Source of the DNA: Bacteroidota bacterium
GTDB taxonomy: Bacteria; Bacteroidota; Bacteroidia; UKL13-3
Direction: 5' to 3'
DNA length: 64,000 bases
Assembly (NCBI GenBank): GCA_027484685.1
Contig: JAIXSO010000032.1
Location: 124,001-188,000, forward strand
Within the stretch, counting starts at the first letter, position 1, and each line of letters begins with the position of its first letter. Below, piece by piece: positions 7,393-21,741 of this stretch. The position numbers and the translations under genes are program-made. The notes beneath the pieces were generated by a model, which was given only the letters and a program-made list of their open reading frames with translations, was not told the DNA's origin and searched no databases.

Positions 7393-7708
7393 TTGATTGT
7401 TAATTGTATTGATATGAATTACTCAACTTAGTACTTAGTACTTCGAACTCTGAACTCTGAACTAAAAAAACTCGAAACCCTCCAACCCGCAACAAACAAC
7501 GACAACAAACAACAAACAACAAACTTCTAACTCCGAACTAAAAAAAACTCGAAACCCGCAACAAACAACAAACTTCGAACTCTGAACTCCGAACTAAAAA
7601 CTCCAAACCCGCAACCCGCAACAAACAAAAACAACAAATAACAAACTCTGAACTAAAAAAACTCGAAACCCTCCAACCCGCAACCCGTAACAAACTAAGA
7701 ACTTCGAA

Positions 7709-8800
7709 CTAAAAAACCTCACATATTTGAAAATACAACCCTGAGTTATTATTTAACCCAACTGCATAATCTACTCTAATATTAGTACGTTGACTTTTAT
7801 TAATATTAAACCTCAATCCTGCGCCCATATTGGGATTAATATACTTTATTTCATTGTTAGGCTCGCTTAAAGTATTAACACCTGCAAAAGCTACCCCACC
7901 AATAAACCTCCATAAATGCGCCCTTAATTCAGCTTCGTAATGCAAAAGCAATTTACCTCGGTAACGACCTTGCACATAACCACGCGTAGTAAATTGTCTT
8001 CCGGTTTGAGGCATTATCATATAAGGCACATCGCCAAGGGCTTGTTCAACCATTATTCTATTGGCAAAAACCAAATTACGTGTAGTTTTAAATTGGTGAT
8101 AATAGCGAGCATCTAAACGCATGTTTAGCCAATCTTGAGTGCTACCCAATATTTTAGAATATGGATTAATTGCTACTTCTAAATATTTGCCTTTATAAGC
8201 ATTTTGAACATTATCTCTGCTATCAAAAATATAATGCACACCTAAGGTAGAAGCAGTAAACTGTTTGGTACCTATGGCATTGTTTTCAAAAAAACTCAAG
8301 GTATCTTTATCCGATTTTAAATCCCAACAAGTGTAAAGGCGGTATTGCAATCCTAAAAAATGATTTGTTTTAAGCTTACGCAAAATTCTTTCCTCTAGTT
8401 CTATAGCTTTATAGGCCACATTTTCTTTAACATTATCTTGCGTGTTTGAACCAAGTGCATAGGTATTTTCGGGCCAGTTTAAATATTGGAGTTTCCCTTG
8501 CCAAATCCAACTTTCGTTATTGGTAAATATTTGGTGGTTAAATTGCGCAGCAAACTGTCCGTTAGTGGTATTAATTACATAAGCTTGTGCATTGCTAAAA
8601 CGCGTAGTTTCTTTAGCGCCTAGCAAAAAATTCACATTGGTTAACACCCCATAACCAAAACCTATAAATGGATCGCTAACCAATACCGGCAATAGCGAAT
8701 AACTAAGCTTTTTGGTGGAATCTGCTTGGGCATTACCTTGCTTATAACCCATTAATAAGCACAAAACCAAACATACTAAAATACTTTTTTTTGAGCCCAT
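7709..8800 (-). CDS. Omp85/BamA-TamA family outer-membrane barrel protein
   Basis: 363 residues with a signal peptide (cleavage after GNAQA, about residue 26) and no POTRA repeats before the barrel. The barrel part shows surface-antigen (D15) features: YIFDSRDNVQNAYKGKYLEV, then the diagnostic motif TRGYVQGRYRGK (about residue 268), then MGAGLRFNINKSQRTNIRVD and a final strand. The lack of POTRA domains suggests a specialised relative rather than BamA itself; such POTRA-less Omp85 proteins of Bacteroidota have no established substrate. It stands alone, on the minus strand between the left repeat block and the defence operon. Confidence 0.82.
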   Translation of the reverse strand: MGSKKSILVCLVLCLLMGYKQGNAQADSTKKLSYSLLPVLVSDPFIGFGYGVLTNVNFLLGAKETTRFSNAQAYVINTTNGQFAAQFNHQIFTNNESWIWQGKLQYLNWPENTYALGSNTQDNVKENVAYKAIELEERILRKLKTNHFLGLQYRLYTCWDLKSDKDTLSFFENNAIGTKQFTASTLGVHYIFDSRDNVQNAYKGKYLEVAINPYSKILGSTQDWLNMRLDARYYHQFKTTRNLVFANRIMVEQALGDVPYMIMPQTGRQFTTRGYVQGRYRGKLLLHYEAELRAHLWRFIGGVAFAGVNTLSEPNNEIKYINPNMGAGLRFNINKSQRTNIRVDYAVGLNNNSGLYFQICEVF

Positions 8801-9138
8801 ACTTAAAATAGTTACCCTACAAATAAATGCTTTTTAGCCAATAGATGAAACACCTATCTTCAAATGAATAAACCTTATCGTCATTAATCTTTGAAAAGCT
8901 AGTAGGACGAAACAGTAACTAGTTACAAATGCTACTTTCATTTTAAATCCTTAGTAATCCACCCAAAGAATTTTCTATTAGATTAAAAATGGTTAAGTAT
9001 CTATTTTTCAAATACAAACTGTATAAAACAAAACAATAAGCAGTAATTTGTAGAACGCCTACTTATAATTTTTTAAAATAATATTTGGTAATCAGAAAAC
9101 TTTGTCTACTTTTGTAGCGTCATTACAAAGGAATAAAT
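8801..9138. other. Divergent promoter region of the restriction operon
   Basis: 338 bases between the barrel gene (minus) and the first gene of the restriction operon (plus). It is AT-rich, has no open frame of note, and ends in a good Bacteroidota promoter (9084-9114). No operator palindrome for a controller protein was seen. Confidence 0.6.
9084..9114 (+). promoter_or_regulatory. Bacteroidota sigma-A type promoter of the restriction operon
   Basis: TTTG at 9084-9087 (the -33 element), 19 bases, then TACTTTTG at 9107-9114 (the -7 element, consensus TAnnTTTG). Both elements match exactly. Transcription would begin around 9120, giving a short leader before the TTG start at 9139, with AAAGGAAT as a ribosome-binding site. 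Confidence 0.75.
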
Positions 9139-9696
9139 TTGAAAAAGCCAATAATAGATATATCAACCGTCCAAACTGGATTCTTTACAAAACCCTTAGG
9201 TGAAGGGGATGTTATTTATTTGCAAGTTAAGCATTTTGATGAGTTTGGACAATTGAAAAGTTCTTTGCATGGTGATTTATTATCTGCCTACATATCCGAA
9301 AAGCATCTTTTAAAAGACGGTGATGTGCTTTTTGCTGCCAAAGGAAGCAAAAATTTTGCAGCAGTATTTGAAAACCATAACGAACCCGCGGTTGCTTCAA
9401 CCTCCTTTTTAGTTATAAGACTAACCGACAAAAAAGTGTTGCCTCAATATTTGGCTTGGGTACTTAACAGCCACACAATGCAAACAATATTGAAAGGACA
9501 AGCCATCGGAACTTCCATTCCTTCTATTTCAAAACAAGTTTTAGAAAATCTGGAAATAGCATTGCCGAGTATTGAAACGCAAAAGGCTATTTTGCAAATT
9601 ACAGAACTCCGCAACAAAGAAAAATCTTTGAAACAGGAAATTGAAACACTTAGAGAAAAACAAATTCAACAACAAATAAACAACGCAATAAAATAA
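9139..9696 (+). CDS. Half-size type I restriction specificity subunit (HsdS-like)
   Basis: 185 residues: one target-recognition domain followed by one helical arm, i.e. half of an ordinary HsdS. The TRD resembles Methylase_S domains (VIYLQVKHFDEFGQLK, then LKDGDVLFAAKGSKNFAAVF) and the arm starts with the classical ENLEIALPSIETQKAILQI followed by a charged coiled coil to the C-terminus. The start is a TTG with a fair ribosome-binding site; no ATG lies suitably upstream. It is the first gene after the promoter, 5 bases before hsdM. A dimer of such halves, or exchange with the full HsdS at 12373, could give a second recognition specificity (inference). Confidence 0.8.
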   Translation: MKKPIIDISTVQTGFFTKPLGEGDVIYLQVKHFDEFGQLKSSLHGDLLSAYISEKHLLKDGDVLFAAKGSKNFAAVFENHNEPAVASTSFLVIRLTDKKVLPQYLAWVLNSHTMQTILKGQAIGTSIPSISKQVLENLEIALPSIETQKAILQITELRNKEKSLKQEIETLREKQIQQQINNAIK

Positions 9697-9701
9697 ATAC
9701 C

Positions 9702-11282
9702 ATGGCTAAAATAACTCAGAAAGACATTAACGATGCAGTATGGAAGGCTTGCGACACCTTTAGAGGAAGCATTGACCCAAGCGTTTACAAAGACTATGTG
9801 CTTACCATGCTGTTCCTGAAATATCTCAGCGATGTACATGACGATAAAATGGAAGGCTACTTGGCAAAATACAATGGTGATGCAGAACGTGCCAAACGAG
9901 CCATGCAACATGAGCGTTTTGTTGTGCCGGAGCATAGCCATTTTAAATTTCTGTACGATTCTCGTAATGAAGCCAACATTGGTGAACTCATTAATATTGC
10001 GTTGGCAGATTTGGAAGAAGCCAACCGAGAGAAATTATACAGTGAAGATGGTGCAGGGATTTTCCAAAACATTGACTTTAACAACAGCAAGCTCGGTGAA
10101 TCAAAAGACAAAAACACCAGATTGAAAAACCTGTTGCTTGATTTCAACAAAGATGCTTTGAACCTTCGTCCTTCGCATTTGGATGGCAACGATATTATTG
10201 GTGGAGCTTATGAATACTTAATTTCCAACTTTGCCAGTGATGCTGGTAAAAAAGCGGGTGAATTTTACACACCAAGCGAAGTTTCTACACTGCTTGCCCG
10301 TTTAACACAAAGCAAACCTGGCTCTCGTATATCTGACCCAACTTGTGGTTCGGGTTCTCTCCTAATTAAAGCAGGTGAAGAAGTGGGTTCTGATAATTTT
10401 TCGCTCTACGGACAAGAAGCCAATGGCAGCACCTGGGCTTTGGCGGTGATGAATATGTTTTTACATGGTTTCGACAATGCTACCATACGTTGGGGCGATA
10501 CCATACGCAACCCTAAACTGAAAGAAGGCGACACGTTAATGAAGTTTGATACAGTTGTAGCAAATCCACCATTCTCACTAGATAAATGGGGCAAGGTAGA
10601 AGACAAAGAAGGCGACAAAACCACCATCAGCTACGACCCTGAAACCGATAAATACAACCGTTTTTGGAGAGGTGTTCCTCCTAAAAGCAAAGGCGACTGG
10701 GCATTTATCAGCCACATGATAGAAACACTGAACGAACACGGCAAAGCAGGTGTGGTAGTACCACATGGAGTATTGTTCCGTGGCAGCAGCGAAGGCCGCA
10801 TACGCCAACGTACCATTGAAGAAAACCTGCTCGAAGCAGTAATTGGCTTACCTGCCAACCTGTTTTTTGGTACAGGTATTCCGGCTGCTATTCTCGTTTT
10901 CAACAAGCAAAAAACTGTCAGTTCGAGCGGAGTCGAGAACAACAACTTTTTGTTTATAGATGCAAGCAAACATTACGAAAGTGCCAAAAACCAAAATAGG
11001 TTACGTGAAAGCGATATTGAACACATTGTAAATACTTACCGTGATTTTGCTGCCGGCAAACTGAAGTCAGGTGTGGTGGAAGATAAATTCAGCTACGTGG
11101 CTACTGCCGCAGAAATACAAGAAAACGATTATAACCTGAACATACCCCGCTATGTGGATACATTTGAAGAAGAAGCCGAAGTGGATATTGCTGCGGTGCA
11201 AAAAGAGATTGAGCAATTGGAAGATGAATTAGTAAAAGTGCAGGCTGAAATTGACCAATATTTAACCCAACTAATCAGGTAG
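9702..11282 (+). CDS. hsdM: Type I restriction-modification DNA methyltransferase HsdM
   Basis: N6-adenine methyltransferase subunit; together with HsdS it methylates the recognition site using S-adenosylmethionine. Of 526 residues, about 8-150 form the HsdM N-terminal helical domain. The catalytic domain has the SAM motif SDPTCGSGSLL (residues 211-221) and the catalytic NPPF (288-291), preceded by GEFYTPSEV (about 187). A coiled tail ends the protein. Residues 407-413 (SSSGVEN) come from a 20-base repeat inserted in frame between two conserved stretches. It is 5 bases after the half-HsdS gene and 2 bases before the RhuM gene. Confidence 0.96.
   Translation: MAKITQKDINDAVWKACDTFRGSIDPSVYKDYVLTMLFLKYLSDVHDDKMEGYLAKYNGDAERAKRAMQHERFVVPEHSHFKFLYDSRNEANIGELINIALADLEEANREKLYSEDGAGIFQNIDFNNSKLGESKDKNTRLKNLLLDFNKDALNLRPSHLDGNDIIGGAYEYLISNFASDAGKKAGEFYTPSEVSTLLARLTQSKPGSRISDPTCGSGSLLIKAGEEVGSDNFSLYGQEANGSTWALAVMNMFLHGFDNATIRWGDTIRNPKLKEGDTLMKFDTVVANPPFSLDKWGKVEDKEGDKTTISYDPETDKYNRFWRGVPPKSKGDWAFISHMIETLNEHGKAGVVVPHGVLFRGSSEGRIRQRTIEENLLEAVIGLPANLFFGTGIPAAILVFNKQKTVSSSGVENNNFLFIDASKHYESAKNQNRLRESDIEHIVNTYRDFAAGKLKSGVVEDKFSYVATAAEIQENDYNLNIPRYVDTFEEEAEVDIAAVQKEIEQLEDELVKVQAEIDQYLTQLIR
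10921..10940 (+). repeat. Short dispersed repeat inserted in frame in hsdM
   Basis: GTTCGAGCGGAGTCGAGAAC, an imperfect palindrome. Its core GAGCGGAGYCGA matches the intergenic repeats at 3233-3257 and 27646-27680. It reads as SSSGVEN (residues 407-413) between VFNKQKTV and NNNFLFIDASKHYE, where HsdM relatives normally run straight from a lysine/asparagine-rich turn into the FIDAS strand. Confidence 0.65.
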
Positions 11283-11284
11283 CT

Positions 11285-12373
11285 ATGGCAAAACAACTGA
11301 AAAAGGCTAACGTGGGTTTTAATGAAATTTTACTTTACACCACACCCAATGGAAAAGTAAAAGTTGAAATTTATCTGCAAAACGAAACTATTTGGCTCAC
11401 ACAGCAAAAAATCGCTGATTTGTTTGGCGTGGACAGAACGGTGGTGACCAAACACTTAACCAATATTTATTCAGAGGGGGAATTAGAAAAAGGAGCAACT
11501 AGTGCAAAAATTGCACAAGTTCAATTGGAAGGAAATAGGGAGGTAAACAGACAAATTGAATATTATAATCTTGATGCAATCATTTCTGTTGGTTATAGAG
11601 TAAGCAGCAGTCAGGCAACGGCTTTTAGAATTTGGGCTACCGAGCGACTTAAAGAGTACATCATCAAAGGTTTTACGATGGATGATGAGCGCCTGAAAAA
11701 CCCTAACAACATTTTTGGGAAAGATTACTTTGAAGAGCAGCTTGCCCGCATCCGAGACATACGCAGCAGCGAACGCAGGTTTTATCAAAAAATAACCGAC
11801 ATCTATGCCCAATGCAGTGCCGACTATAAAGCCGATTCAGAAATCACCAAAACCTTTTTTGCCACCGTGCAAAACAAGTTGCATTGGGCCATTACAGGGC
11901 AAACAGCTGCCGAAATTATACATACACGAGCCAACAGCAACAAAGAAAATATGGGATTGTCTAATTGGAAAAATGCTCCTGAAGGAAAAATTCGCAAAAC
12001 AGATATTGGCATTGCCAAAAACTACCTGAATGAAAAAGAAATAGACGGATTGAACCGCATTGTAAGCATGTACTTAGACTTTGCCGAAATGCAAGCCAGC
12101 AGAGGCATAATCATGTACATGAAAGACTGGACAGCCCGCTTAGATGCCTTTTTGCAGTTCAATGAACAGGCCATATTGAAAGATGCCGGAAAAGTAAGCC
12201 ACGAAGTTGCTTTAGCGCTTGCAGAAAATGAATTTGATAAATACAGCAAAAAGCAGGATACTCATTACGAAAGCGATTTTGATAAAAACCTGAAGACAGC
12301 CAAACAAATAGAACAAGCCGAAGATGACTTGGACAAAGCCATGAAAAAACTACAAACCAAAAAGAAAAAATAA
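11285..12373 (+). CDS. RhuM family protein
   Basis: 362 residues of the RhuM (virulence-associated, DNA-binding-like) family, which commonly sits inside type I restriction operons with unknown role. Typical features: LYTTPNGKVKVEIYLQNETI at the start, a helix-turn-helix-like WLTQQKIADLFGVDRTVVTKHL (residues about 37-58), the GYRVSSSQATAFRIWATERL segment (about 102-121), and a lysine-rich tail. It begins 2 bases after the hsdM stop and ends with its last base overlapping the ATG-side of hsdS. The family was first named in Salmonella; a regulatory or anti-phage role is inferred only. Confidence 0.88.
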   Translation: MAKQLKKANVGFNEILLYTTPNGKVKVEIYLQNETIWLTQQKIADLFGVDRTVVTKHLTNIYSEGELEKGATSAKIAQVQLEGNREVNRQIEYYNLDAIISVGYRVSSSQATAFRIWATERLKEYIIKGFTMDDERLKNPNNIFGKDYFEEQLARIRDIRSSERRFYQKITDIYAQCSADYKADSEITKTFFATVQNKLHWAITGQTAAEIIHTRANSNKENMGLSNWKNAPEGKIRKTDIGIAKNYLNEKEIDGLNRIVSMYLDFAEMQASRGIIMYMKDWTARLDAFLQFNEQAILKDAGKVSHEVALALAENEFDKYSKKQDTHYESDFDKNLKTAKQIEQAEDDLDKAMKKLQTKKKK

Positions 12374-13599
12374 TGGCAGAAACAAAAAATACCAAAGCGT
12401 TTTACAATACTGAAATTCCAGAAGGATGGAGTGTTTCTTTATTAGGAGAATTAGGGACGTTTTCCAAAGGAAAAGGAATATTGAAGGAGCAAGTAATTTC
12501 TGATGGGTTACCATGTATTCGCTATGGAGAAATTTATACAACTCACGATTTTATAATTAAAAATTTTAAGTCATTCATAAGCAATGATGTTGCAACTGAA
12601 AGCAAAGAAATTCAAATGGGTGACATTCTTTTTGCTGGCTCAGGTGAAACACTAGAAGAAATTGGAAAAGCTGTTGCTTATATTGGAAATCATAAAGCGT
12701 ATGCAGGTGGTGATGTGATTATTCTTTCAACGAAAAAGGATGTTAATCCAGAGTGTCTTTCATATGCTTTGGAAACTGATTTTGTAAAGAGGCAAAAGCG
12801 AGTTTTAGGTCAAGGCAACTCAGTTGTTCATATTTATTCAAGTGATTTATCAAAAGTAAAAATCCCACTCCCCCCGCTCCCCGAGCAAAAAGCCATTGCC
12901 CAAGTGCTCAGCACGGCAGATGCCGCTATACGCACCACGGAAAAACTTATCGTCCAAAAAGAACTCCGTAAAAAATGGCTCATGCAGCAATTGCTTACGG
13001 GGAAGAAAAGGTTGAAAGGGTTTGGTGGAGAGTGGAAGGAAAACAAACTAGAATTCTTCATAAAAGATTATAAGCAGAAGCCTACTGATGAAGATAACTA
13101 TGAAGTATTGACATCTGCAAAAGCAGGATTAATGAAGCAAACTGATTATTATGGTGACAATAGAATAACAAATAGAGATGATGCAGATTACAATGTTATA
13201 CCACCAAATTATTTGACCTATCGTTCAAGAAGTGACGATGGCTTATTCACTTTCAATAAAAATGATTTAGGAATAACTGGTTTGATAAGTGGATACTATC
13301 CCGTTTTTACAATTAAGAATGGAGATATAAATTTCATGCTGATGTACATGAATTATTACAGACAAAAGTTGACCAAATATGCCATTGGTACATCACAACT
13401 TGTTTTGGCAATGAATGCTCTCAAAGAAGCAAAGTTCCATTTACCAAAAGAAGAAGAACAAACCGCTATTGCACAGGTGCTTCAGGCGGCAGATAAAGAA
13501 ATCAGCCTGTTCAAAGCCAAAGCAGAGAAGTTGCGGGAGCAGAAAAAGGGTTTGATGCAACAGTTGTTAACTGGGAAGGTGAGGTTGAAAATTGATTAG
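12373..13599 (+). CDS. hsdS: Type I restriction specificity subunit HsdS
   Basis: Determines the bipartite target sequence of the HsdMS methyltransferase and HsdMSR nuclease. The 408 residues show the internal duplication of a full HsdS: TRD1 (about 12-165), first conserved arm PLPPLPEQKAIAQVLSTAD and LMQQLLTGKKRLKGF (about 166-217), TRD2 (about 220-355), then second arm PKEEEQTAIAQVLQAADKE and GLMQQLLTGKVRLK. The two arms are near copies of each other, as usual. It overlaps the RhuM gene by one base. The TRDs do not resemble that of the half-HsdS at 9139, so the two gene products should recognise different sequences. Confidence 0.95.
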   Translation: MAETKNTKAFYNTEIPEGWSVSLLGELGTFSKGKGILKEQVISDGLPCIRYGEIYTTHDFIIKNFKSFISNDVATESKEIQMGDILFAGSGETLEEIGKAVAYIGNHKAYAGGDVIILSTKKDVNPECLSYALETDFVKRQKRVLGQGNSVVHIYSSDLSKVKIPLPPLPEQKAIAQVLSTADAAIRTTEKLIVQKELRKKWLMQQLLTGKKRLKGFGGEWKENKLEFFIKDYKQKPTDEDNYEVLTSAKAGLMKQTDYYGDNRITNRDDADYNVIPPNYLTYRSRSDDGLFTFNKNDLGITGLISGYYPVFTIKNGDINFMLMYMNYYRQKLTKYAIGTSQLVLAMNALKEAKFHLPKEEEQTAIAQVLQAADKEISLFKAKAEKLREQKKGLMQQLLTGKVRLKID

Positions 13600-13629: not shown

Positions 13630-14385
13630 ATGGAAAATAAAGACACAAAAGAAAAAATTTTAAATGATAGTAAGGTTTCAAACTTAACTATTCATGAAAG
13701 CTATATATGGAATCATTTAATCAATTCAATTCCTGATAATCTAAATGATATGCCTCATTATTTTTCTCCATTAACTAATTACGAAAAAAACATAGATTTT
13801 AATGAAAAATTTAACCTAAGAAAGTTAGAAATTCCTTTACACATATATCTAAAAAATAATACAATAATTAATCCTGTTTTGGATGAACTAAATAATATTA
13901 TTGAAGAAAACGATATTATTTTAAGGCCACTGAATGATGATGATGCCCTAAACTTTAAAAAAATAAATGGCATTCAAATTCAAGACGACAACGAAACTGC
14001 TTGGGAATATTATTTAAATTACAGCATGCAAGATTTTAATGTAGAGCCAGGTTTTGCGGCATTATTATTCACATACAAAGGTTTTTCTATGGCAGCAATT
14101 TCAATTCACCCTGGAGGTAATATTGATGTAAGAGGGCCTTATATGATGTCGAAGTTGTATGTATTAAAATATGGAAATATTTTAAATTATAGTTCCCTTA
14201 AAGGTTTTATTCATGGAACCAGTATCGTTTTAGATTCATACCAAATTAATAGTAAATTTTTCTTTAACGAATCTTGTAATGTTTGGCAGCATAAAAAAAA
14301 CAATCTATTGCTCGACATTCAAATATCTAATCTCCCCTCAAATATTGATTTTGATTATGATGAAATTCCTGAAATATTAAAATAA
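13630..14385 (+). CDS. Unrecognised 251-residue protein in the restriction operon
   Basis: I do not recognise this family. The protein is acidic to neutral, Asn/Ile/Lys-rich, without signal peptide, membrane segment or obvious catalytic motif. Segments that look structured are FAALLFTYKGFSMAAISIHP and an adjacent GGNIDVRGPYMMSKLYV, suggestive of a beta-rich globular core, after an N-terminal half of helices. It begins 30 bases after hsdS with an ATG, and is more AT-rich than the hsd genes, suggesting separate acquisition. Its place between hsdS and the glycosylase-like trio makes a defence-related or toxin/antitoxin role possible, but nothing in the sequence proves it. Confidence 0.55.
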   Translation: MENKDTKEKILNDSKVSNLTIHESYIWNHLINSIPDNLNDMPHYFSPLTNYEKNIDFNEKFNLRKLEIPLHIYLKNNTIINPVLDELNNIIEENDIILRPLNDDDALNFKKINGIQIQDDNETAWEYYLNYSMQDFNVEPGFAALLFTYKGFSMAAISIHPGGNIDVRGPYMMSKLYVLKYGNILNYSSLKGFIHGTSIVLDSYQINSKFFFNESCNVWQHKKNNLLLDIQISNLPSNIDFDYDEIPEILK

Positions 14386-14515: not shown

Positions 14516-15166
14516 ATGACTTGTAAACACAAATTTTGTACTGACTTAGATTTAAGTTATGTTGATTATGAACCTGAAATACTTATTGTGGGTACATTTA
14601 ACCCAGAATGGCCAAAGGCTAATTATGCCGAATGGTTTTATGGTCGTACAGATGCTAATTACTTTTGGGATGTTCTGCCCAGAATGTTTGAAGGTAAATC
14701 ATTACTAACAGCCACACCAGAGGAATGGAAAGACTTTTGCAAACGAAATAAAATTGCCATTACCGATTTAATAAAAGAAGTAACTACGTTCAATCAAAAG
14801 AATGAAGAGGATAAGGCAGTACTTGCAACCTATGGAGACAAGGCACTAATTGAAAATGAAAAGGATTTTATTTACAATTCAATTTCTGACCTGATAACAA
14901 AATTCCCTTCGATAAAACATATTTATTTTACACGAAAGCTTGATAGCAATTGGAAAGCCGTTTGGGGTGAATGTGGAATAAAAAACTTAGCTACTATTAA
15001 CGAATTATACACCCCATCTCGCTATGCATCGTATGCAACAAGTAAGTGGAGGAAGGAAATTGGCAAATATGAAAAGCCAATGTCTATTCCTGATTTTATC
15101 ATAGGAAAATGGAGACCAGTTTTCGAAAAACATGGATATAATTCAAAAATTAAAATAGAACTATGA
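14516..15166 (+). CDS. Uracil-DNA glycosylase-superfamily-like protein
   Basis: 216 residues. The N-terminus resembles the UDG superfamily: a first strand and motif 1 loop EILIVGTFNPEWP (about residues 21-33) followed by FYGRTDANYFWDVLPRMF (about 42-59), which matches the pattern of a strand, loop, YG, and NxFW helix in mismatch/uracil glycosylases. A plausible later strand is IKHIYFTRKLDSNW (about 142-155); a canonical catalytic motif 2 was not recognised. It could excise a damaged or modified base, or merely bind DNA. It overlaps the metallophosphoesterase gene by 4 bases. The 130 bases before it hold only short frames. Confidence 0.5.
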   Translation: MTCKHKFCTDLDLSYVDYEPEILIVGTFNPEWPKANYAEWFYGRTDANYFWDVLPRMFEGKSLLTATPEEWKDFCKRNKIAITDLIKEVTTFNQKNEEDKAVLATYGDKALIENEKDFIYNSISDLITKFPSIKHIYFTRKLDSNWKAVWGECGIKNLATINELYTPSRYASYATSKWRKEIGKYEKPMSIPDFIIGKWRPVFEKHGYNSKIKIEL

Positions 15167-15954
15167 AACTCCAATACGCCTCCGACCTTCACTTAGAATT
15201 TCCTGCCAATAAGGAATATCTAAAACAGCACCCCTTACAGCCTTTGGGCGATGTATTGGTGTTAGCTGGAGATATTGTACCTTTTGCTGTGATGGATAAA
15301 CACAAAGATTTTTTTAGTTATGTTTCAGATAATTTTAAAACCACCTATTGGTTACCAGGCAACCATGAATACTATTATTATGATTTGGCCAATAAATGTG
15401 GTTCAATCCATGAAAAGATAAAAAGCAATGTGTTTTTAGTAAATAATATGGCTTTTAACCATGAGGAAATAAAATTGGTTTTTTCTACTTTATGGTCAAG
15501 GATAAGCAGTGAGAATGAATGGAATATTGAACGAAGTGTAAGTGATTTTCATGTAATAAAGTACAACAAAATGCGCTTTTCTGTTCCTGTTTTTAACCAA
15601 TTGCATGAAGAGAGTTTGGCTTTTATTAAATTGGAAGTACATCGGGAAGAGTTCGGAACAACATCGGTAGAAGTACAGCAAGATAACAGTAAAACTGTGG
15701 TTGTAACTCATCATGTTCCCACCTTTTTAAATTACCCTGAGCAGTATAAGCAAAGTAGCATTAATCAGGCATTCGGTGTGGAGTTATTTGATTTAATAGA
15801 AGCAAGCAATTTAAATGCTTGGATATTCGGACACCATCATGAAAATATTCCTAGTTTTAAAATTGGCAACACAGAAATGTTGACCAATCAATTGGGTTAT
15901 GTGCAACAAAATGAACATCGGTTTTTTAAAACAAATAAATGTATTGAATTATGA
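15163..15954 (+). CDS. Calcineurin-like metallophosphoesterase
   Basis: 263 residues with the full set of metal-binding motifs of the two-metal phosphoesterase fold: SDLHLEF (Asp8, His10), AGDIV (Asp37), GNHEY (Asn67, His68), VVTHHVP (about residue 185) and FGHHHEN (about residue 225). No extra nuclease capping domain is visible, so it resembles stand-alone phosphoesterases or nucleases of unknown substrate. ATG overlaps the previous gene by 4 bases and its stop overlaps the next ATG by 4 bases, so the three genes are translationally coupled. In this DNA-processing context nucleic acid is a likely substrate (inference). Confidence 0.88.
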   Translation: MKLQYASDLHLEFPANKEYLKQHPLQPLGDVLVLAGDIVPFAVMDKHKDFFSYVSDNFKTTYWLPGNHEYYYYDLANKCGSIHEKIKSNVFLVNNMAFNHEEIKLVFSTLWSRISSENEWNIERSVSDFHVIKYNKMRFSVPVFNQLHEESLAFIKLEVHREEFGTTSVEVQQDNSKTVVVTHHVPTFLNYPEQYKQSSINQAFGVELFDLIEASNLNAWIFGHHHENIPSFKIGNTEMLTNQLGYVQQNEHRFFKTNKCIEL

Positions 15955-17627
15955 ATACAATTGAATTAAAACACATTTTACAAAATCTCCTCAATCTCTC
16001 AGCAGAAAATGAAATTGTGGAGTTTAAGGAGGCTAAAACGGGCTATGATTTTAACAAATTGGGCAAGTACTTTTCTGCTTTAAGTAACGAAGCCAATTTA
16101 AAAGGAAAACCTTATGCCTGGTTGGTATTTGGCGTAGAAAATAAAAGGCATAGCATTGTGGGTAGCCAGTTTCGTTTACAACGAAAAGATTTAGATAGCC
16201 TAAAAAGTGAAATTGCTAATAAAACCACCAACCGAATTACGTTTATTGAAGTTTACGAATTGAACGAACCCGAAGGTCGTGTAGTGATGTTTCAAATACC
16301 CGCTGCCCCTAAAGGTTTCCCTATAGCTTTTGATGGACATTATTATGGTAGAGATGATGAGGAACTTTCGCCTTTAAACTTAGAAGAAATAGAACGAATA
16401 AGGGCACAAGCCACTACAGAAGACTGGAGTGCAGCAATTGTGCCAAATGCAACTTTAGAAGACTTGGACGAAGAAGCAATTGCTTTGGCAAGAAAGAACT
16501 TTAAAAATAAATTCCCAGAAAAAGCTACAGATGTTGACGGATGGGACGATATTACTTTTTTGAATAAGGCAAAAATTACTATAAAAGGAAAACTAACCCG
16601 CACTGCCATAATCCTTTTAGGTAAAGAAGAATCGGAACACTATATTAATCCTGCCGAAGCAAAAGTGCGTTGGCTGTTGAGAGATGCACTGGGTAATGAT
16701 AAAGACTATGCCATATTTGGTTGCCCTCTGATATTGGCCGTTGATAAAGTATATGCTAAAATTCGCAACTTAAAGTATCGCTACATCAAAGAAGGAACGC
16801 TGTTCCCTGATGAAGTAAACCAATATGAGCCTTATTCCATCCGTGAAGCATTAAACAACTGCATTGCCCATCAGGATTATACTAAACATGGGCGTATTAA
16901 TGTAGTAGAAATGGACGACCAATTGATATTTACCAATTTAGGTTCTTTTATTCCGGGTAGTGTAGAAAAGGTGGTAAAGGAAGATGCTCCAGAAGAACAT
17001 TACCGCAATCGTTTTTTAGCATCTGCCATGTTTAACCTTAAAATGGTTGACACAGCAGGTGGAGGAATCAAAAAAATATTCAACTTTCAACGAGAGCGTT
17101 TTTTCCCTATGCCTGACTACGACATATCAGGTGGCAAGGTGAAAGTAAGCATTTCTGGAAAGATTCTGGATATTGAATATGCTCGTTTGTTAGCAAGAAA
17201 CAAAGAACTGACATTAGAAGAAATTATCATGCTTGATAAGGTACAGAAAAAACAGACCTTGAAAGAGCTTGAAGAAAAACACCTCAGGAACAAAAAACTC
17301 ATTGAGGGTAGAAAGCCAAACTATTTCATTGGCATAAAAGTAGCAGCCAAAACAGGACAAAAAGCAGCCTATTCTAAAAACAAAGCATTTGACAAGAGCT
17401 ATTATCTGGATTTAATAGAAAAAGCTATTAGAGAACATAAAAGTTTAGAAAGAAATGAAATAGATGAATTGCTTTGGAATAAACTACCAGAGTGGATGGA
17501 AGAAAAACAGAAGAAGAACAAGATTGGGAACTTATTGTCAGAACTAAGAATAAAAGAAAGAATTGAGAATACGGGAAGTTTTAGTAAACCAAAATGGTCT
17601 CTTAAGAAAACAGATCAAAGAATTTAA
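15951..17627 (+). CDS. AlbA_2 (Schlafen-like) domain and HATPase_4 protein
   Basis: 558 residues of the family once annotated as putative RecG-like transcriptional regulators. The N-terminal AlbA_2 domain is seen in ENEIVEFKEAKTGYDF and PYAWLVFGVENKRHSIVG (residues about 18-65); this domain is related to Schlafen and binds nucleic acid in relatives. A central divergent GHKL ATPase-like region carries REALNNCIAHQDYTKHGRIN (about 297-316) and LIFTNLGSFIPGSV. The C-terminal part holds a winged-helix-like segment ending KPKWSLKK. The stop codon lies in a 12-base tandem repeat. Homologues occur in defence contexts, e.g. beside type I systems. Overlaps the phosphoesterase by 4 bases. Confidence 0.82.
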   Translation: MNTIELKHILQNLLNLSAENEIVEFKEAKTGYDFNKLGKYFSALSNEANLKGKPYAWLVFGVENKRHSIVGSQFRLQRKDLDSLKSEIANKTTNRITFIEVYELNEPEGRVVMFQIPAAPKGFPIAFDGHYYGRDDEELSPLNLEEIERIRAQATTEDWSAAIVPNATLEDLDEEAIALARKNFKNKFPEKATDVDGWDDITFLNKAKITIKGKLTRTAIILLGKEESEHYINPAEAKVRWLLRDALGNDKDYAIFGCPLILAVDKVYAKIRNLKYRYIKEGTLFPDEVNQYEPYSIREALNNCIAHQDYTKHGRINVVEMDDQLIFTNLGSFIPGSVEKVVKEDAPEEHYRNRFLASAMFNLKMVDTAGGGIKKIFNFQRERFFPMPDYDISGGKVKVSISGKILDIEYARLLARNKELTLEEIIMLDKVQKKQTLKELEEKHLRNKKLIEGRKPNYFIGIKVAAKTGQKAAYSKNKAFDKSYYLDLIEKAIREHKSLERNEIDELLWNKLPEWMEEKQKKNKIGNLLSELRIKERIENTGSFSKPKWSLKKTDQRI

Positions 17628-17656: not shown

Positions 17657-17818
17657 AACAAGATGAAGAATTTGATAATGACATTGATAAACAAAGAGCT
17701 AGAAAATGAGGTGAGATATAATAAGTTTGACATAAGAGAAAAATTACTAGAGGAACTATTAGAGGAAGTGAATAATCAGCCATTCATATTTCGTAACTCA
17801 TAACTCATATCTTAAAAA

Positions 17819-20800
17819 ATGGACACACCAAGTTTTAAAGAAGACCATATCAGCCAGATTCCTGCATTGCAAATGCTAGTGAATTTAGGTTACACATATT
17901 TAAGTCCCGCAGAAGCCGACAGGCAAAGAGGCGGCAAAACTTCCAATGTATTGCTGGAAGATGTGTTGCGGAAGCAGTTGAAAGAAATCAACAGCATCAA
18001 GGTAAGTGCAACCAAAACAAGCATTTTCACAGACGATAATATTGAACGTGGGATTTTGGCATTGAAAAACCTGCCTATGAACGAAGGCTACATTGCAGCC
18101 AGTGAAAAGGCTTACAACCTGCTCACTTTGGGTCTGGCGTTGGAACAAAGTGTAGATGGCGATAAAAAAAGTTTCACGCTGCAATACATCGATTGGAAAA
18201 ACATTGGCAACAATGTGTTTCATGTAAGCGAAGAATATAGTGTGCTGAGAAGCACCAGTAAAGAGCATTACCGCCCAGACTTAGTTTTGTTTGTAAATGG
18301 CATTCCGCTTTGCATCATTGAATGCAAACGCCCTGATATGAAAGAGCCATTAAAACAGGCTATCAGTCAGCATTTACGTAATCAACAGGAAGATGGAATC
18401 CGCAGCTTGTATGTGTATTCACAGCTCACCTTGAGTATTGCCACACAAGAAGCCGCTTATGCCACCAACGCCACACCCGAAAAGTTTTGGGCTAAATGGC
18501 ATGAAAAGTTTAACAGTGATGAAGAAGAATACAACTTCAAAAACAAATTGCAAGAATTCAAAAACAAACCGCTTCCAATTGCTATAAAAGAACAATTGTT
18601 TTCTGACCGATTTAATTACGTTCGTCAATATTTTGATGCATTGGAACAAGAGGAAATCCTACCAACTGAACAAGACAATTATTTATATGGCCTATGCCGA
18701 CCTGAAAGATTGATGGACATTGTTTTCAATTTTGTGTTGTTCGACAATGGTGAAAAGAAAGTAGCTCGCTATCAGCAGTTTTTTGCCATTAAAAAATCAA
18801 TGCAACGCATAAAACAAATTGAAAACGGAAAACGAAAAGGCGGTGTAATCTGGCACACACAAGGAAGCGGGAAATCATTAACGATGGTGATGCTGGCACA
18901 AGCCATTGCCATGGAACCAAGCATTCGTAATCCAAAAATTGTGTTGGTTACCGACCGTACCGATTTGGATAATCAAATTACAGGCACTTTTCGCAAGTGT
19001 GGCAGGTTTGTAGAAAATGCCATAACGGGCCAAAGATTGGTTGAACTATTGGAAAACAAAAGCGATGCAGTAGTAACCACCATTATCAACAAATTTGTAG
19101 CAGCAGTAAAAAAAATTAGCAAGCCGTTAGAGAGCCACGATATTTTTGTTTTGGTAGATGAAGGACACCGAACACAACATGGTACTTTTAATATCGACAT
19201 GCAAAAAACTTTGCCGAATGCCTGTTTCATAGCCATGACAGGAACACCGTTATTCAAAAAAGACAAAAGCACAGCAGAAAAATTTGGAGGAATGATTGAT
19301 GCCTATACAGTTGACCAAGCCGTAAAAGACAAAGCAGTAGTACCACTTCTTTATGAAGGTAGATTGGCTTTGCAGGAAGTAAATGCAAGTCCGATTGATA
19401 CTTTTTTCGGAATGGTTTCTGAACCATTAACCGACTACCAAAAAGCAGACATCAAGAAAAAGTTTGCCCGAAACGACCATTTAAATGCTGCCGAACAAAA
19501 AATGCGAATGATTGCCTGGGACATCAGCTATCATTTTAGAGACAATTGGCAAGGTAGAACGCCTTTCAAAGGACAGTTGGTGTGCGATAAAAAAGTGAAT
19601 GCCGTTAAATACAAAGAGTATCTGGATGAAATTGGCATTGTAAGCAGCGAAGTATTGATTTCTTCATCGGATGATAGAGAAGGAGAAGAAAGTGCATATG
19701 AAAAAACACCTGAAAAGGTGAATTCATTTTGGTCAAAAATGATGGATGAACACGGCAATTCAAAAAGCTATGAAAAGAACATCATCAGCCGTTTCAAAAA
19801 TCAGAAAGACCCCGAAATAATTATCGTAGTTGACAAATTACTTACAGGTTTTGATGAACCTAAAAACACGGTTTTATATCTCACAAGAAATTTGCAAAGC
19901 CATAAGCTATTACAAGCCATAGCAAGGGTAAACCGCATTTATCCTGACAAAGAATTTGGTTATATCATTGACTATTATGGAGTAATTGAAAACTTAGACG
20001 ATGCCTTACAGTTATACTCATCATTTGAAGATTTTGATGATGAAGATTTGGCAGGAACAATGACCAATATTTCGGATGAAATAAAAAAACTACCGCAAAA
20101 GCATTCCGACCTTTGGGATATTTTCAAAACTATTGCCAACAAACGTGATGCGGAGGCTTATCAGCAGCTATTGAAAGATGAAGCTTTACGAGTTTTGTTT
20201 TACGATAAACTGGCAGCATTTGCCAAGGGCTTGAAACTGGCTTTATCTTCTATTCAATTCCACAAGGAAGTTGAAGAAAAGGTAATCAATCGCTATAAAG
20301 AAGATTTGACCATGTTTTTGAAATTACGTTTGGCCGTTGTAGAGAGATACAGTGATGAAATTGACTACAAACAATACGAAGGCCAAATTCAAAAACTGAT
20401 TGACACTCACATCACCACCGAGAAAATTGAAACCATCACAGAACTGGTTAATATTTTTGATAAGGACAAATTTCAACAGGAAGTAGAAAACACTACAGGA
20501 AAAGCAGCGAAGGCAGATAAGATTGCAAGCAGAACTGCAAAACACATTACAGAGAAGATGGATGAAGATCCTGCTTTTTACAAAAAGTTTTCACAAATGT
20601 TGAAAGAAACCATTGCCGACTATGAAGCCAAGCGTATAAGTGAGGCACAATACCTGAGCAGAGTTCAAGACATCATGAACAATGTGCTGGCTCATACCGA
20701 CAATGATATTCCAGAGCAGTTAAAAGACAGAGATGTTGCCAAAGCCTTTTACGGTTTAACCGTTGAGGCACTTTCAGAAAAGATTCAAGATAATGTAGTC

Positions 20801-21046
20801 CGCAAAGAAATTTCGACACAAACTGCTTTACAAATAGATGACCTAATTCAAGATGCTGTTTTAGACAATGGGAAACCCATTATTGACTGGCAATACAAAA
20901 CAAACATCACAGGTAAATTGCTCATTGATATTGGCGACTATCTCATTGATGAAGTTCGCGACAAATACAATGTGGACTTGACATTTAAGGACATGGATAA
21001 AATTGCAGAAGATTGTATTGAAGTTGCTAAAATCCGTTACAAGTAA
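17819..21046 (+). CDS. hsdR: Type I restriction endonuclease subunit HsdR
   Basis: Motor and nuclease subunit of the HsdRMS complex: translocates DNA using ATP and cuts away from the site. In 1075 residues: the PD-(D/E)xK nuclease with PDLVLF (Asp about 153) and IECKR (Glu168, Lys170); SF2 helicase with Walker A HTQGSGKS (about 346-353), DEGH box (447-450), MTGTPL (about 476) and motif VI region LLQAIARVNRI; and a long helical C-terminus that contacts HsdM/S. The start is ATG 17819, 191 bases after the AlbA_2 gene, a gap containing repeats and degenerate frames. Length and motif order are normal for the family. Confidence 0.96.
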   Translation: MDTPSFKEDHISQIPALQMLVNLGYTYLSPAEADRQRGGKTSNVLLEDVLRKQLKEINSIKVSATKTSIFTDDNIERGILALKNLPMNEGYIAASEKAYNLLTLGLALEQSVDGDKKSFTLQYIDWKNIGNNVFHVSEEYSVLRSTSKEHYRPDLVLFVNGIPLCIIECKRPDMKEPLKQAISQHLRNQQEDGIRSLYVYSQLTLSIATQEAAYATNATPEKFWAKWHEKFNSDEEEYNFKNKLQEFKNKPLPIAIKEQLFSDRFNYVRQYFDALEQEEILPTEQDNYLYGLCRPERLMDIVFNFVLFDNGEKKVARYQQFFAIKKSMQRIKQIENGKRKGGVIWHTQGSGKSLTMVMLAQAIAMEPSIRNPKIVLVTDRTDLDNQITGTFRKCGRFVENAITGQRLVELLENKSDAVVTTIINKFVAAVKKISKPLESHDIFVLVDEGHRTQHGTFNIDMQKTLPNACFIAMTGTPLFKKDKSTAEKFGGMIDAYTVDQAVKDKAVVPLLYEGRLALQEVNASPIDTFFGMVSEPLTDYQKADIKKKFARNDHLNAAEQKMRMIAWDISYHFRDNWQGRTPFKGQLVCDKKVNAVKYKEYLDEIGIVSSEVLISSSDDREGEESAYEKTPEKVNSFWSKMMDEHGNSKSYEKNIISRFKNQKDPEIIIVVDKLLTGFDEPKNTVLYLTRNLQSHKLLQAIARVNRIYPDKEFGYIIDYYGVIENLDDALQLYSSFEDFDDEDLAGTMTNISDEIKKLPQKHSDLWDIFKTIANKRDAEAYQQLLKDEALRVLFYDKLAAFAKGLKLALSSIQFHKEVEEKVINRYKEDLTMFLKLRLAVVERYSDEIDYKQYEGQIQKLIDTHITTEKIETITELVNIFDKDKFQQEVENTTGKAAKADKIASRTAKHITEKMDEDPAFYKKFSQMLKETIADYEAKRISEAQYLSRVQDIMNNVLAHTDNDIPEQLKDRDVAKAFYGLTVEALSEKIQDNVVRKEISTQTALQIDDLIQDAVLDNGKPIIDWQYKTNITGKLLIDIGDYLIDEVRDKYNVDLTFKDMDKIAEDCIEVAKIRYK

Positions 21047-21741
21047 TGACAGAAGCGATACAATTTGGCAGCAGAACAATTGATTTTCGTTTGGAGTATT
21101 CCGACAGAAAATCGCTTGGCATAACTGTAACTCCTGAAATGGAAGTTTTGGTAAAAGCACCGACCGATACTTCAATGGAAAAAGTAAAAGAGAAAATTAG
21201 AAAAAAAGCACCTTGGATTATTATACAACAAAGCTTCTTTCTGTCCTTTCAACCAAAGACACCACAACGAAAATACATAAGTGGAGAAACACATTTGTAT
21301 TTGGGCAGACAATACCGCTTGCAAATTTCAATCGACAAAGAAGAATCTGTAAAACTAAAAGGTAAATTCATTGAAGTAACAGCAAGTGATAAGTCAAGAG
21401 CAAAAGACTTATTAAACGATTGGTATTTGCAACATGCACGAACAAAGTTTCATGCAATTGCAACACCACTGATTGACAAATTCAAAATTCATAAAGTTGA
21501 ACCTAGTTCTATTGTGTTAAGAAACATGCCCACACGCTGGGGTAGTTGCACTCCAAAAGGAAAAATTATTCTAAATCCTGAATTAATTAAAGCACCAAAA
21601 GGCTGCATTGAATATGTGATTATACACGAACTTTGTCATTTAATATATCACGACCACACACAGAAATTTTTAGATTTACAAACCAAAGAAATGAAAGACT
21701 GGGAAAAGTGGAAAATGAAATTAGAGAAACTACTAGCATGA
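21046..21741 (+). CDS. YgjP/SprT-like zinc metalloprotease (DUF45)
   Basis: 231 residues of the DUF45 family (YgjP-like, M48-related), which often ends type I restriction operons. The zinc motif is HELCH (residues 194-198), followed by HDHTQKFLDL that supplies the third ligand, preceded by the characteristic TRWGSCTPKGKIILNPELIKAP (about 165-186). Its ATG overlaps the hsdR TAA by one base, so it should be made together with HsdR. Substrate is unknown; proteolysis of HsdR or of a phage protein is possible (inference; in E. coli HsdR levels are controlled by ClpXP). Confidence 0.9.
   Translation: MTEAIQFGSRTIDFRLEYSDRKSLGITVTPEMEVLVKAPTDTSMEKVKEKIRKKAPWIIIQQSFFLSFQPKTPQRKYISGETHLYLGRQYRLQISIDKEESVKLKGKFIEVTASDKSRAKDLLNDWYLQHARTKFHAIATPLIDKFKIHKVEPSSIVLRNMPTRWGSCTPKGKIILNPELIKAPKGCIEYVIIHELCHLIYHDHTQKFLDLQTKEMKDWEKWKMKLEKLLA

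What the first reader, a model, noticed from the sequence alone, without database searches (positions are those of the whole stretch)
14516..17627. Overlapping glycosylase-like, phosphoesterase and AlbA_2/ATPase genes inside a type I restriction operon
Seen: three genes joined by 4-base overlaps (15163-15166 and 15951-15954) lie between hsdS and hsdR on one strand. The first has a UDG-superfamily-like start (VGTFNP, then YG and NYFW), the second has all five metallophosphoesterase motifs, the third has an AlbA_2 domain with a GHKL-like ATPase. Known: calcineurin-like nucleases and AlbA_2/Schlafen-like proteins recur in defence loci, and glycosylases can attack phage DNA with modified bases. 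Inference: a base-excision plus strand-processing module riding in a restriction island, possibly an undescribed anti-phage system.
Basis: partly seen in the sequence, partly recalled or inferred. Interest (0 to 1): 0.75.

Follow-up and report, generated by a model that had tools for sequence, protein, structure and literature searches.

The report
Glycosylase cargo in restriction operon
A bacterial anti-virus restriction operon carries, in a slot where genes are swapped in and out, an enzyme with the fold of a DNA-repair glycosylase, often sitting beside enzymes that cut chemically disguised virus DNA, so it may help the cell attack viruses that hide from ordinary restriction.

Summary
The trio is real: 216-, 263- and 558-aa genes with two 4-base ATGA overlaps, between hsdS and hsdR. 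P1 has the UDG fold (AlphaFold pLDDT 90.8; best PDB matches: an archaeal putative UDG, then TDG/MUG). P2 is a calcineurin-like phosphoesterase; P3 a Schlafen/AlbA_2-GHKL-type protein.

The trio is not a fixed module. It is cargo of a Bacteroidota type I operon (hsdM-hsdS-hsdR-YgjP): the window and a relative with 93%-identical HsdR share hsdM, hsdR and P2, but little else between. In 40 complete operons P1, P2 and P3's close family occur in 3 each, together only in the window. One other contig holds P1, an AlbA_2-ATPase and an opposite-strand phosphoesterase.

P1 recurs in 10 such loci (hsd genes visible in 9). In 6 of 10 a modification-dependent (type IV) gene is near it (GmrSD_N pairs or McrBC), against 3 of 37 operons without P1; within one operon subtype this is not significant (p 0.077).

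Most likely P1 is a Brig-like defence glycosylase that attacks modified phage bases, complementing type I restriction. Activity and substrate are untested. Most relatives (19 of 27) lie outside hsd loci, some near repair genes, so repair is the main rival.

The parts
9139..9696 (+). half-length HsdS-like protein (185 aa)
   Evidence: Methylase_S 2.2e-10; a gene of this size precedes hsdM in many related operons
9702..11282 (+). hsdM, N6-adenine methyltransferase subunit (526 aa)
   Evidence: N6_Mtase 2.5e-101, HsdM_N 5.5e-24
11285..12373 (+). RhuM-family cargo between hsdM and hsdS (362 aa)
   Evidence: Virulence_RhuM 1.6e-113; PADLOC PDC-S05 4e-150
12373..13599 (+). hsdS specificity subunit (408 aa)
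   Evidence: Methylase_S 5.2e-27
13630..14385 (+). orphan cargo gene (251 aa) in a stretch of 27-31% GC
   Evidence: no family hit; no match in the 197 other genomes searched; GC
14516..15166 (+). P1: UDG-fold DNA glycosylase homologue (216 aa)
   Evidence: AF2 pLDDT 90.8; VIA Z 11.9 to 2l3f, 11.6 to human TDG; hhalign probability 97.9 to TIGR04274-type proteins
14591..14605 (+). P1 residues 26-30 GTFNP, position of UDG motif 1, with Asn29-Pro30
   Evidence: G26, T27, F28 invariant and N29, P30 at least 90% in 34 aligned sequences; Asn29 falls opposite a gap in the hypoxanthine-glycosylase profile
15011..15019 (+). P1 residues 166-168 TPS, candidate second active-site motif
   Evidence: P167 at least 90% in 34 sequences; role inferred
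15163..15954 (+). P2: calcineurin-like metallophosphoesterase (263 aa)
   Evidence: Metallophos 9.1e-14; phrog_1649 6.5e-35; motif residues invariant in 7 sequences
15951..17627 (+). P3: Schlafen/AlbA_2-GHKL ATPase protein (558 aa)
   Evidence: HATPase_c_4 2.1e-11; AlbA_2 in 12 of 14 family members, not in the window protein itself
17819..21046 (+). hsdR, restriction/translocase subunit (1075 aa); DNA similarity to relative L122 resumes at 17818
   Evidence: HSDR_N 4.5e-37, SWI2_SNF2 1.8e-77; blastn
21046..21741 (+). YgjP-like metallopeptidase that closes the operon (231 aa)
   Evidence: YgjP-like 2e-51; next or next but one after hsdR in 63 of 67 hsdR loci

Best explanation
The locus is a Bacteroidota type I restriction-modification operon whose slots between hsdM and hsdS and between hsdS and hsdR hold exchangeable defence cargo. 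P1 is one recurrent cargo family: a UDG-superfamily protein related to hypoxanthine-DNA glycosylase and TDG/MUG. The most likely working is layered defence. HsdMSR cuts unmodified phage DNA at unmethylated sites. P1 flips out and removes a non-canonical (phage-modified) base, leaving abasic sites that block phage replication. Where GmrSD-like or McrBC genes follow, they cut the same kind of modified DNA; in the window the next genes are instead a phosphoesterase and a Schlafen-type protein, probably a separate backup. Shown here: operon, fold, recurrence, cargo exchange and a tendency to lie near type IV genes. Inferred: catalysis, the substrate, and the anti-phage effect.
For: UDG fold: pLDDT 90.8; 2l3f is the only Foldseek hit with E <= 0.001; nearly all of the 50 VIA rows shown are UDG-superfamily entries by title, led by 2l3f (11.9) and human TDG (11.6). 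Recurrence directly after or within two genes of hsdS in L195, L038/L204, L042, L044, L046, L048, L049, L050 and the window, plus L043 on a contig without visible hsd genes. Hosts lie in several families and the embedded copies fall in three groups on the tree, which fits transfer. Type IV genes near P1 in 6 of 10 loci (GmrSD_N pairs in L195, L038, L043, L044, L050; McrBC in L049) versus GmrSD_N in 3 of 37 operons without P1 (Fisher p 0.0013). A decayed P1 start lies directly upstream of an intact GmrSD_N pair in L061, where no hsd gene was recognised. N29 and P30 are kept in at least 90% of 34 sequences; dN/dS is about 0.21 and 0.10 in two pairs of embedded copies, at high dS (two further pairs saturated). 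Precedents: Brig1 and Brig3 and BREX plus the GmrSD homologue BrxU as complementary layers.
Against: No activity or phage data. 19 of 27 long-form relatives in the genome-contig scan (L028-L054) show no hsd genes, and 13 of them form one clade. Of a few of their neighbours checked with Pfam, some are repair genes: a methyladenine glycosylase beside P1 in L035, another UDG about 4 kb away in L039, a Vsr endonuclease about 4 kb away in L041; others are Fic (L033) and a WCX-domain protein (L045). The window operon itself has no type IV gene. Within the same hsdR subtype the enrichment is 6 of 9 versus 3 of 14, p 0.077 (L043, whose hsdR is not visible, is counted in the 9). The P1 and non-P1 sets were gathered by different searches, and the P1 loci are related. 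P1 is absent from 37 of 40 operons, so it is dispensable. A single origin of the embedded copies is not rejected (p-AU 0.127).
Confidence: 0.52

Rival explanations
1. P1 is a DNA-repair glycosylase for deaminated bases, for instance hypoxanthine arising from adenine or from the N6-methyladenine that HsdM makes, carried as a repair partner in the way Vsr accompanies cytosine methylases (Vsr parallel recalled).
For: Nearest named family is TIGR04274 DNA-deoxyinosine glycosylase (20 of 34 family members match at E <= 0.01, best 4.8e-10; profile-profile probability 97.9); best fold match 2l3f is from Methanosarcina; 19 of 27 long-form relatives are outside hsd loci, with a methyladenine glycosylase, a UDG or a Vsr gene nearby in L035, L039 and L041; HsdM is an adenine methylase.
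Against: Below the TIGR04274 cut-off (25.2 versus 80 bits) and outside the clade of true members (100/99 support); motif 1 differs (GTFNP against GTMPG and alike); only 3 of 40 hsd operons carry it, though all carry hsdM; type IV genes are frequent neighbours of the embedded copies.
Confidence: 0.25
2. P1 is ordinary passenger cargo in a slot that collects unrelated genes; its place and neighbours carry no joint function.
For: Cargo differs widely among the 40 complete operons; DNA similarity between window and L122 drops out across the cargo, except P2 and parts of hsdS.
Against: P1 recurs in 10 loci in several host families and is under constraint; GmrSD_N pairs lie near it in 5 loci and next to the L061 remnant.
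Confidence: 0.12
3. The first reader's module: P1, P2 and P3 form one three-gene base-excision and strand-processing system.
For: 4-base overlaps suggest coupled translation; L046 holds P1, an AlbA_2-ATPase and, on the other strand after the operon, a phosphoesterase.
Against: P2 without P1 or P3 in L122 and L168; P3 without P1 or P2 in L128 and L129; P1 without either in L195, L204, L042, L043, L044, L048, L049, L050. In the 296 genomes searched for both, no genome other than G000 has P2 and P3 matches within 50 kb of each other (nearest G271, about 58 kb). P3 resembles Schlafen-GHKL-wHTH RNases.
Confidence: 0.06
4. P1 has lost catalysis and serves as a sensor or DNA-binding subunit that tells the restriction complex about modified bases.
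For: No His at the TPS position that I read as motif 2 in the alignment, and embedding after hsdS.
Against: Families 2 and 6 also lack that His (PMC5387724 passages); candidate catalytic Asn29 and the surrounding motif are kept in embedded and solitary long forms alike.
Confidence: 0.05

Closest known systems
Brig1, Brig2, Brig3 defence glycosylases (PMC11078745 passages; PMC13160076 outline, abstract and passages; Brig2 only as cited there)
   Same: UDG-superfamily single proteins (Brig1, Brig3) in defence islands; Brig3 places Asn50, next to Pro51, near the glycosidic bond, reminiscent of Asn29-Pro30 here (inference)
   Different: Brig1 homologues reported mostly in Actinobacteria; no Brig sequence was compared here; the main text of the Brig1 paper has no occurrence of Bacteroid, hypoxanthine or type I restriction; P1's substrate is unknown
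Family 6 hypoxanthine-DNA glycosylase (TIGR04274; 2l3f)
   Same: fold and overall profile (hhalign 97.9%), aromatic-YG...N..W region
   Different: below curated cut-off, separate clade, GTFNP instead of GTMPG, longer C-terminal part, hsd context in 8 of 27 long-form loci of the scan (one of them inferred)
BREX plus BrxU (GmrSD family) layered island (PMC8565348; passages seen)
   Same: sequence-specific system paired with a modification-dependent enzyme in one island
   Different: BREX instead of type I restriction; no glycosylase in the passages seen
DarTG2 embedded between hsdS and hsdR (PMC12255303; passages seen; it cites Payne et al. 2024, which I did not see)
   Same: same slot, same principle of embedding
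   Different: E. coli; the main text has no occurrence of glycosylase
Schlafen-GHKL-wHTH proteins in BREX loci (PMC12839542; passages seen)
   Same: AlbA_2 plus GHKL domain order of P3-type proteins
   Different: P3 here is in a type I operon; a wHTH was seen in the L046 relative, not found by Pfam in the window protein
PabI restriction glycosylases (PMC10273834; passages seen)
   Same: restriction through base excision
   Different: HALFPIPE fold, own methylase partner

Membership tests
UDG superfamily | UDG alpha/beta fold over the whole domain | tested here: met
   pLDDT 90.8; Foldseek 2l3f E 1e-5; Z 11.9 to 2l3f, 11.6 TDG, 8.5 SMUG1
UDG superfamily | conserved motif 1 region in the family | tested here: met
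   G26 T27 F28 invariant, N29 P30 at least 90% in 34 sequences
UDG superfamily | base excision activity | not testable with these tools
   needs protein
TIGR04274 / family 6 hypoxanthine-DNA glycosylase | curated score of 80 bits | tested here: not met
   25.2 bits; two matches in the own genome, neither over the cut-off
TIGR04274 / family 6 hypoxanthine-DNA glycosylase | places inside the clade of members above cut-off | tested here: not met
   8 HDG rows are one clade, 100/99, without P1 (midpoint root, long branches)
TIGR04274 / family 6 hypoxanthine-DNA glycosylase | motif 1 without the catalytic Asn (PMC5387724 passages) | tested here: not met
   GTFNP against GT/GS-x-PG in 8 of 8 HDG rows; that Asn29 is catalytic is inferred
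Brig glycosylases | UDG-superfamily protein in a defence locus | tested here: met
Brig glycosylases | sequence homology to Brig1 or Brig3 | not tested
   no Brig sequence was used
Brig glycosylases | excision of a phage hypermodified base, phage protection | not testable with these tools
   needs assay
Type I restriction-modification | hsdM, hsdS, hsdR on one strand | tested here: met
Type IV (GmrSD, McrBC) enzyme in the window operon | GmrSD_N or McrBC domain between hsdM and hsdR | tested here: not met
   window cargo scanned; such domains were found in other P1 loci
Calcineurin-like metallophosphoesterase (P2) | Pfam Metallophos above cut-off and motif residues | tested here: met
   52.8 bits, cut-off 21.5
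Schlafen AlbA_2-GHKL (P3) | GHKL-type HATPase_c_4 domain | tested here: met
   44.1 bits, cut-off 26
Schlafen AlbA_2-GHKL (P3) | AlbA_2 domain in the window protein itself | tested here: inconclusive
   not listed at E <= 1; 12 of 14 family members match
Three-gene base-excision module | genes travel together | tested here: not met
   separate occurrence in 40 operons and the P1 loci
PabI restriction glycosylases | HALFPIPE fold | tested here: inconclusive
   fold comparison lists UDG entries at the top; absence of a row excludes nothing

The most novel reading that the evidence does not exclude
A family of UDG-fold glycosylases is a built-in modified-DNA arm of Bacteroidota type I restriction operons: P1 removes a phage-specific modified base, and co-embedded GmrSD or McrBC genes cut the same DNA, so that one operon covers both plain and disguised phage genomes; in the window the phosphoesterase and the Schlafen protein replace the type IV pair as downstream effectors.
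Probability: 0.32. Interest if true: 0.75.

Novelty: new variant of a known kind. Interest (0 to 1): 0.55.

Why it matters
Base excision as phage defence is recent (Brig1 2024, Brig3 preprint 2026). A further lineage of UDG-fold proteins embedded in Bacteroidota type I restriction operons, with type IV genes as frequent neighbours, would show that glycosylase defence is wider and is wired into classical restriction. It gives concrete candidates (window, Flavobacterium omnivorum, Belliella calami, Pedobacter terrae) and a simple test. The cargo slot between hsdS and hsdR is also a practical place to look for new defence genes.

Tried and rejected
P1 in plasmids, phages and IMG/VR: no match. P1 model against viral structures: no hit with E <= 0.001. 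Sequence search of the PDB with P1 or its profile gave only chance-level hits; only the short paralogue L023 found 2l3f, E 0.0093. The P2 model from two sequences was poor (pLDDT 61.6) and was not used for a fold search. Enrichment for type IV genes restricted to one hsdR subtype was not significant (p 0.077).

Papers: Schlafen plus bacterial plus phage defense plus AlbA gave none, Schlafen plus antiphage four (one followed up); DNA glycosylase with type I restriction-modification and defense island gave three, and DNA glycosylase with hsdR, hsdS or defense system gave 115, of which 20 were listed. None of the titles and abstract starts that I saw describes a UDG-like gene in an hsd operon; the library is open access, mostly without preprints, and these were listings only.

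Rows left out: L054 and L058 (long branches) and L042 (short frame, 178 aa) from the second tree; L040, L051, L057, L061 and L005 are in neither tree. The hsdR search scored at most two candidates a genome; its 67 places were cut to the 40 in which my ORF caller and phmmer thresholds found hsdM, hsdS and hsdR, and 27 were dropped. A 297-aa P1-like form in G004 (L005/L220) lies among glycosyltransferase-like genes (my reading of the frames, no family scan) and was not pursued.

Change on checking: after the Pfam scan of some neighbours of solitary copies I moved the main reading from 0.55 to 0.52, repair from 0.22 to 0.25 and the novel case from 0.33 to 0.32.
Full report
Observation. They lie between hsdS and hsdR of a type I operon that also holds a half-length HsdS, hsdM, a RhuM gene, an orphan gene at 13630-14385, and a YgjP-like metallopeptidase after hsdR. 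P2 is a calcineurin-like phosphoesterase with its motif residues kept in all 7 aligned sequences. P3 has a GHKL-type ATPase domain; AlbA_2 is missed in the window protein but found in 12 of 14 family members.

P1 has the UDG fold. Pfam gives no match above cut-off; NCBIfam gives DNA-deoxyinosine glycosylase at 25.2 bits against a cut-off of 80. AlphaFold2 with an alignment of 34 sequences gives pLDDT 90.8. Foldseek finds one PDB chain at E <= 0.001, 2l3f, a putative UDG of Methanosarcina acetivorans; in the realignment 2l3f leads (Z 11.9, 158 residues, 3.4 A), followed by human TDG (11.6), MUG (11.0) and SMUG1 (8.5). Nine matches above the TIGR04274 cut-off stand in 7 of 118 genomes; eight of the nine were aligned. 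The P1 profile matches theirs with probability 97.9, but they form their own clade (100/99). P1 reads GTFNP where they read GTMPG or alike; in the profile alignment Asn29 falls opposite a gap. PMC5387724 (abstract and passages) says that the Asp or Asn in motif 1 of families 1 and 2 that positions the water is missing in families 4, 5 and 6. So P1 is near family 6 by profile and may have a family-2-like Asn; the second half is inference.

Where P1 occurs. In 196 relatives P1 matches 20 genomes, mostly through short paralogues. In 395 genomes across the phylum it matches 5, and the full-length form is present in two of them: G000 twice (window and C2) and G321. All three of these copies lie in hsd operons. 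G321 is taken to be Flavobacterium omnivorum from the shared contig length and position. A scan of one genome per species for 84,980 species gave 34 loci, 27 of them long forms (L028-L054). Seven of these lie beside visible hsd genes (L038, L042, L044, L046, L048, L049, L050) and L043 shares neighbours with them on a short contig; 19 show no hsd gene near them (the output was cut at L036 and L037). With window and L195 that makes 10 loci. Of the solitary copies, nine neighbours in six loci were scanned: a methyladenine glycosylase beside P1 in L035, a UDG in L039, Vsr with DUF4411 and an IrrE-type peptidase in L041, Fic in L033, a WCX-domain protein in L045, nothing in L054. On the tree the ten embedded copies fall in three groups and 13 solitary copies form one clade; one clade of embedded copies is not rejected (p-AU 0.127, 9 rows).

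The operon has exchangeable cargo. All 67 hsdR places listed (59 of 395 genomes, at most two scored a genome) were examined; YgjP follows in 63 of 67, and 40 loci have hsdM, hsdS and hsdR. Between them lie many different genes. In the 37 operons without P1, 114 cargo proteins of 120 aa or more (from 35 operons; two had none) match RhuM 10, Fic 10, Bro-N 7, SMODS 5, GmrSD_N 5, HATPase_c_4 4, AlbA_2 2, Metallophos 2 and others (25 of 70 families are shown). Window and L122, whose HsdR proteins are 93% identical, match in DNA over half-S and hsdM (9047-11265, 79%), in conserved parts of hsdS, over P2 (67%) and again from 17818, one base before hsdR, to 21747 (85%); nothing else between matches at E 1e-5. 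L142, L128 and L129 resume within 7 bases of the hsdR start. The orphan gene and P1 lie in a stretch of 27-33% GC while hsdM reaches 43%. The trio is therefore most simply an assembly of separately acquired cargo: P2 without P1 and P3 in L122 and L168, P3 without P1 and P2 in L128 and L129. L046 is the only other locus seen with all three kinds: P1, a 447-aa AlbA_2-GHKL protein between P1 and hsdR, and a phosphoesterase (43% identical to P2) on the other strand beyond YgjP.

P1's neighbours. Cargo in the other nine loci was scanned with Pfam: 25 proteins from eight loci (L042 has none between P1 and hsdR), 10 with GmrSD_N (pairs in L195, L038, L043, L044, L050), one McrBC with an AAA_5 partner (L049), one AlbA_2-GHKL (L046) (assignment to loci). 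So 6 of 10 loci hold type IV genes. In operons without P1, GmrSD_N proteins fall in 3 of 37 (L171, L189, L192), and phmmer with L049's McrBC protein found no relative. Fisher p is 0.0013, but within the hsdR subtype of the other nine P1 loci it is 6 of 9 against 3 of 14, p 0.077; samples differ in origin and loci share ancestry, so this is support, not proof. In L061 a decayed start of P1 lies directly upstream of an intact GmrSD_N pair, with no hsd gene recognised in the locus.

Mechanism. I take P1 as a single-protein defence glycosylase that removes a modified base, in line with Brig1 (alpha-glucosyl-5hmC), Brig2 (modified thymine, as cited) and Brig3 (5hmC) (PMC11078745 passages; PMC13160076 outline, abstract and passages). 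GmrSD-family BrxU cuts 5mC, 5hmC and glucosyl-5hmC DNA and complements BREX, which acts on unmodified phage DNA (PMC8565348 passages). Type I restriction with P1 and GmrSD would repeat that logic. P3 fits the Schlafen RNase with minimal histidine kinase and wHTH described for BREX loci as a backup suicidal effector (PMC12839542 passages). P2's role is open: a phosphoesterase could process ends at abasic sites, but it appears without P1, and its relatives occur in 92 of 50,697 phage records. The main rival is repair of deaminated bases, favoured by the hypoxanthine-glycosylase kinship and by the solitary copies.

Verdict.

Noticed in passing
21046-21741: A YgjP-like metallopeptidase lies next or next but one after hsdR in 63 of 67 hsdR loci of both subtypes, a conserved gene of unknown role in these type I systems.
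   Followed up: partly
9139-9696: A half-length HsdS-like gene precedes hsdM in the window and in many relatives of its subtype, perhaps a specificity reserve.
   Followed up: no
13630-14385: Orphan 251-aa gene of low GC between hsdS and P1; no family hit and no match in the 197 other genomes searched.
   Followed up: partly
L061:10001-14742: Decayed P1 start directly upstream of an intact GmrSD_N pair; no hsd gene recognised in the locus.
   Followed up: partly
L195:565-15635: The same genome carries a second, different type I operon with its own P1 copy, a PLD-like nuclease, a GmrSD_N pair and an IS200-like transposase gene.
   Followed up: partly
L023:1465-2016: A third, short P1 paralogue in the same genome lies beside sugar-nucleotide enzyme-like genes (my reading) and reads GTFSH instead of GTFNP in motif 1.
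   Followed up: no
L038:10719-11468: A 249-aa protein with no Pfam hit at E 0.01 recurs next to P1 and GmrSD genes (L038/L204, L043) and in L197 without P1.
   Followed up: partly
L041:2-5353 and L051: Two methylotroph (Methylococcaceae/Methyloglobulus) contigs carry P1 outside Bacteroidota; in L041 a Vsr endonuclease lies about 4 kb away.
   Followed up: partly
L220:9626-10519: A 297-aa P1-like protein in another genome of the same genus; its first residues as read from the GTG start are nearly repeated at the start of the neighbouring frame 7586-9553.
   Followed up: no
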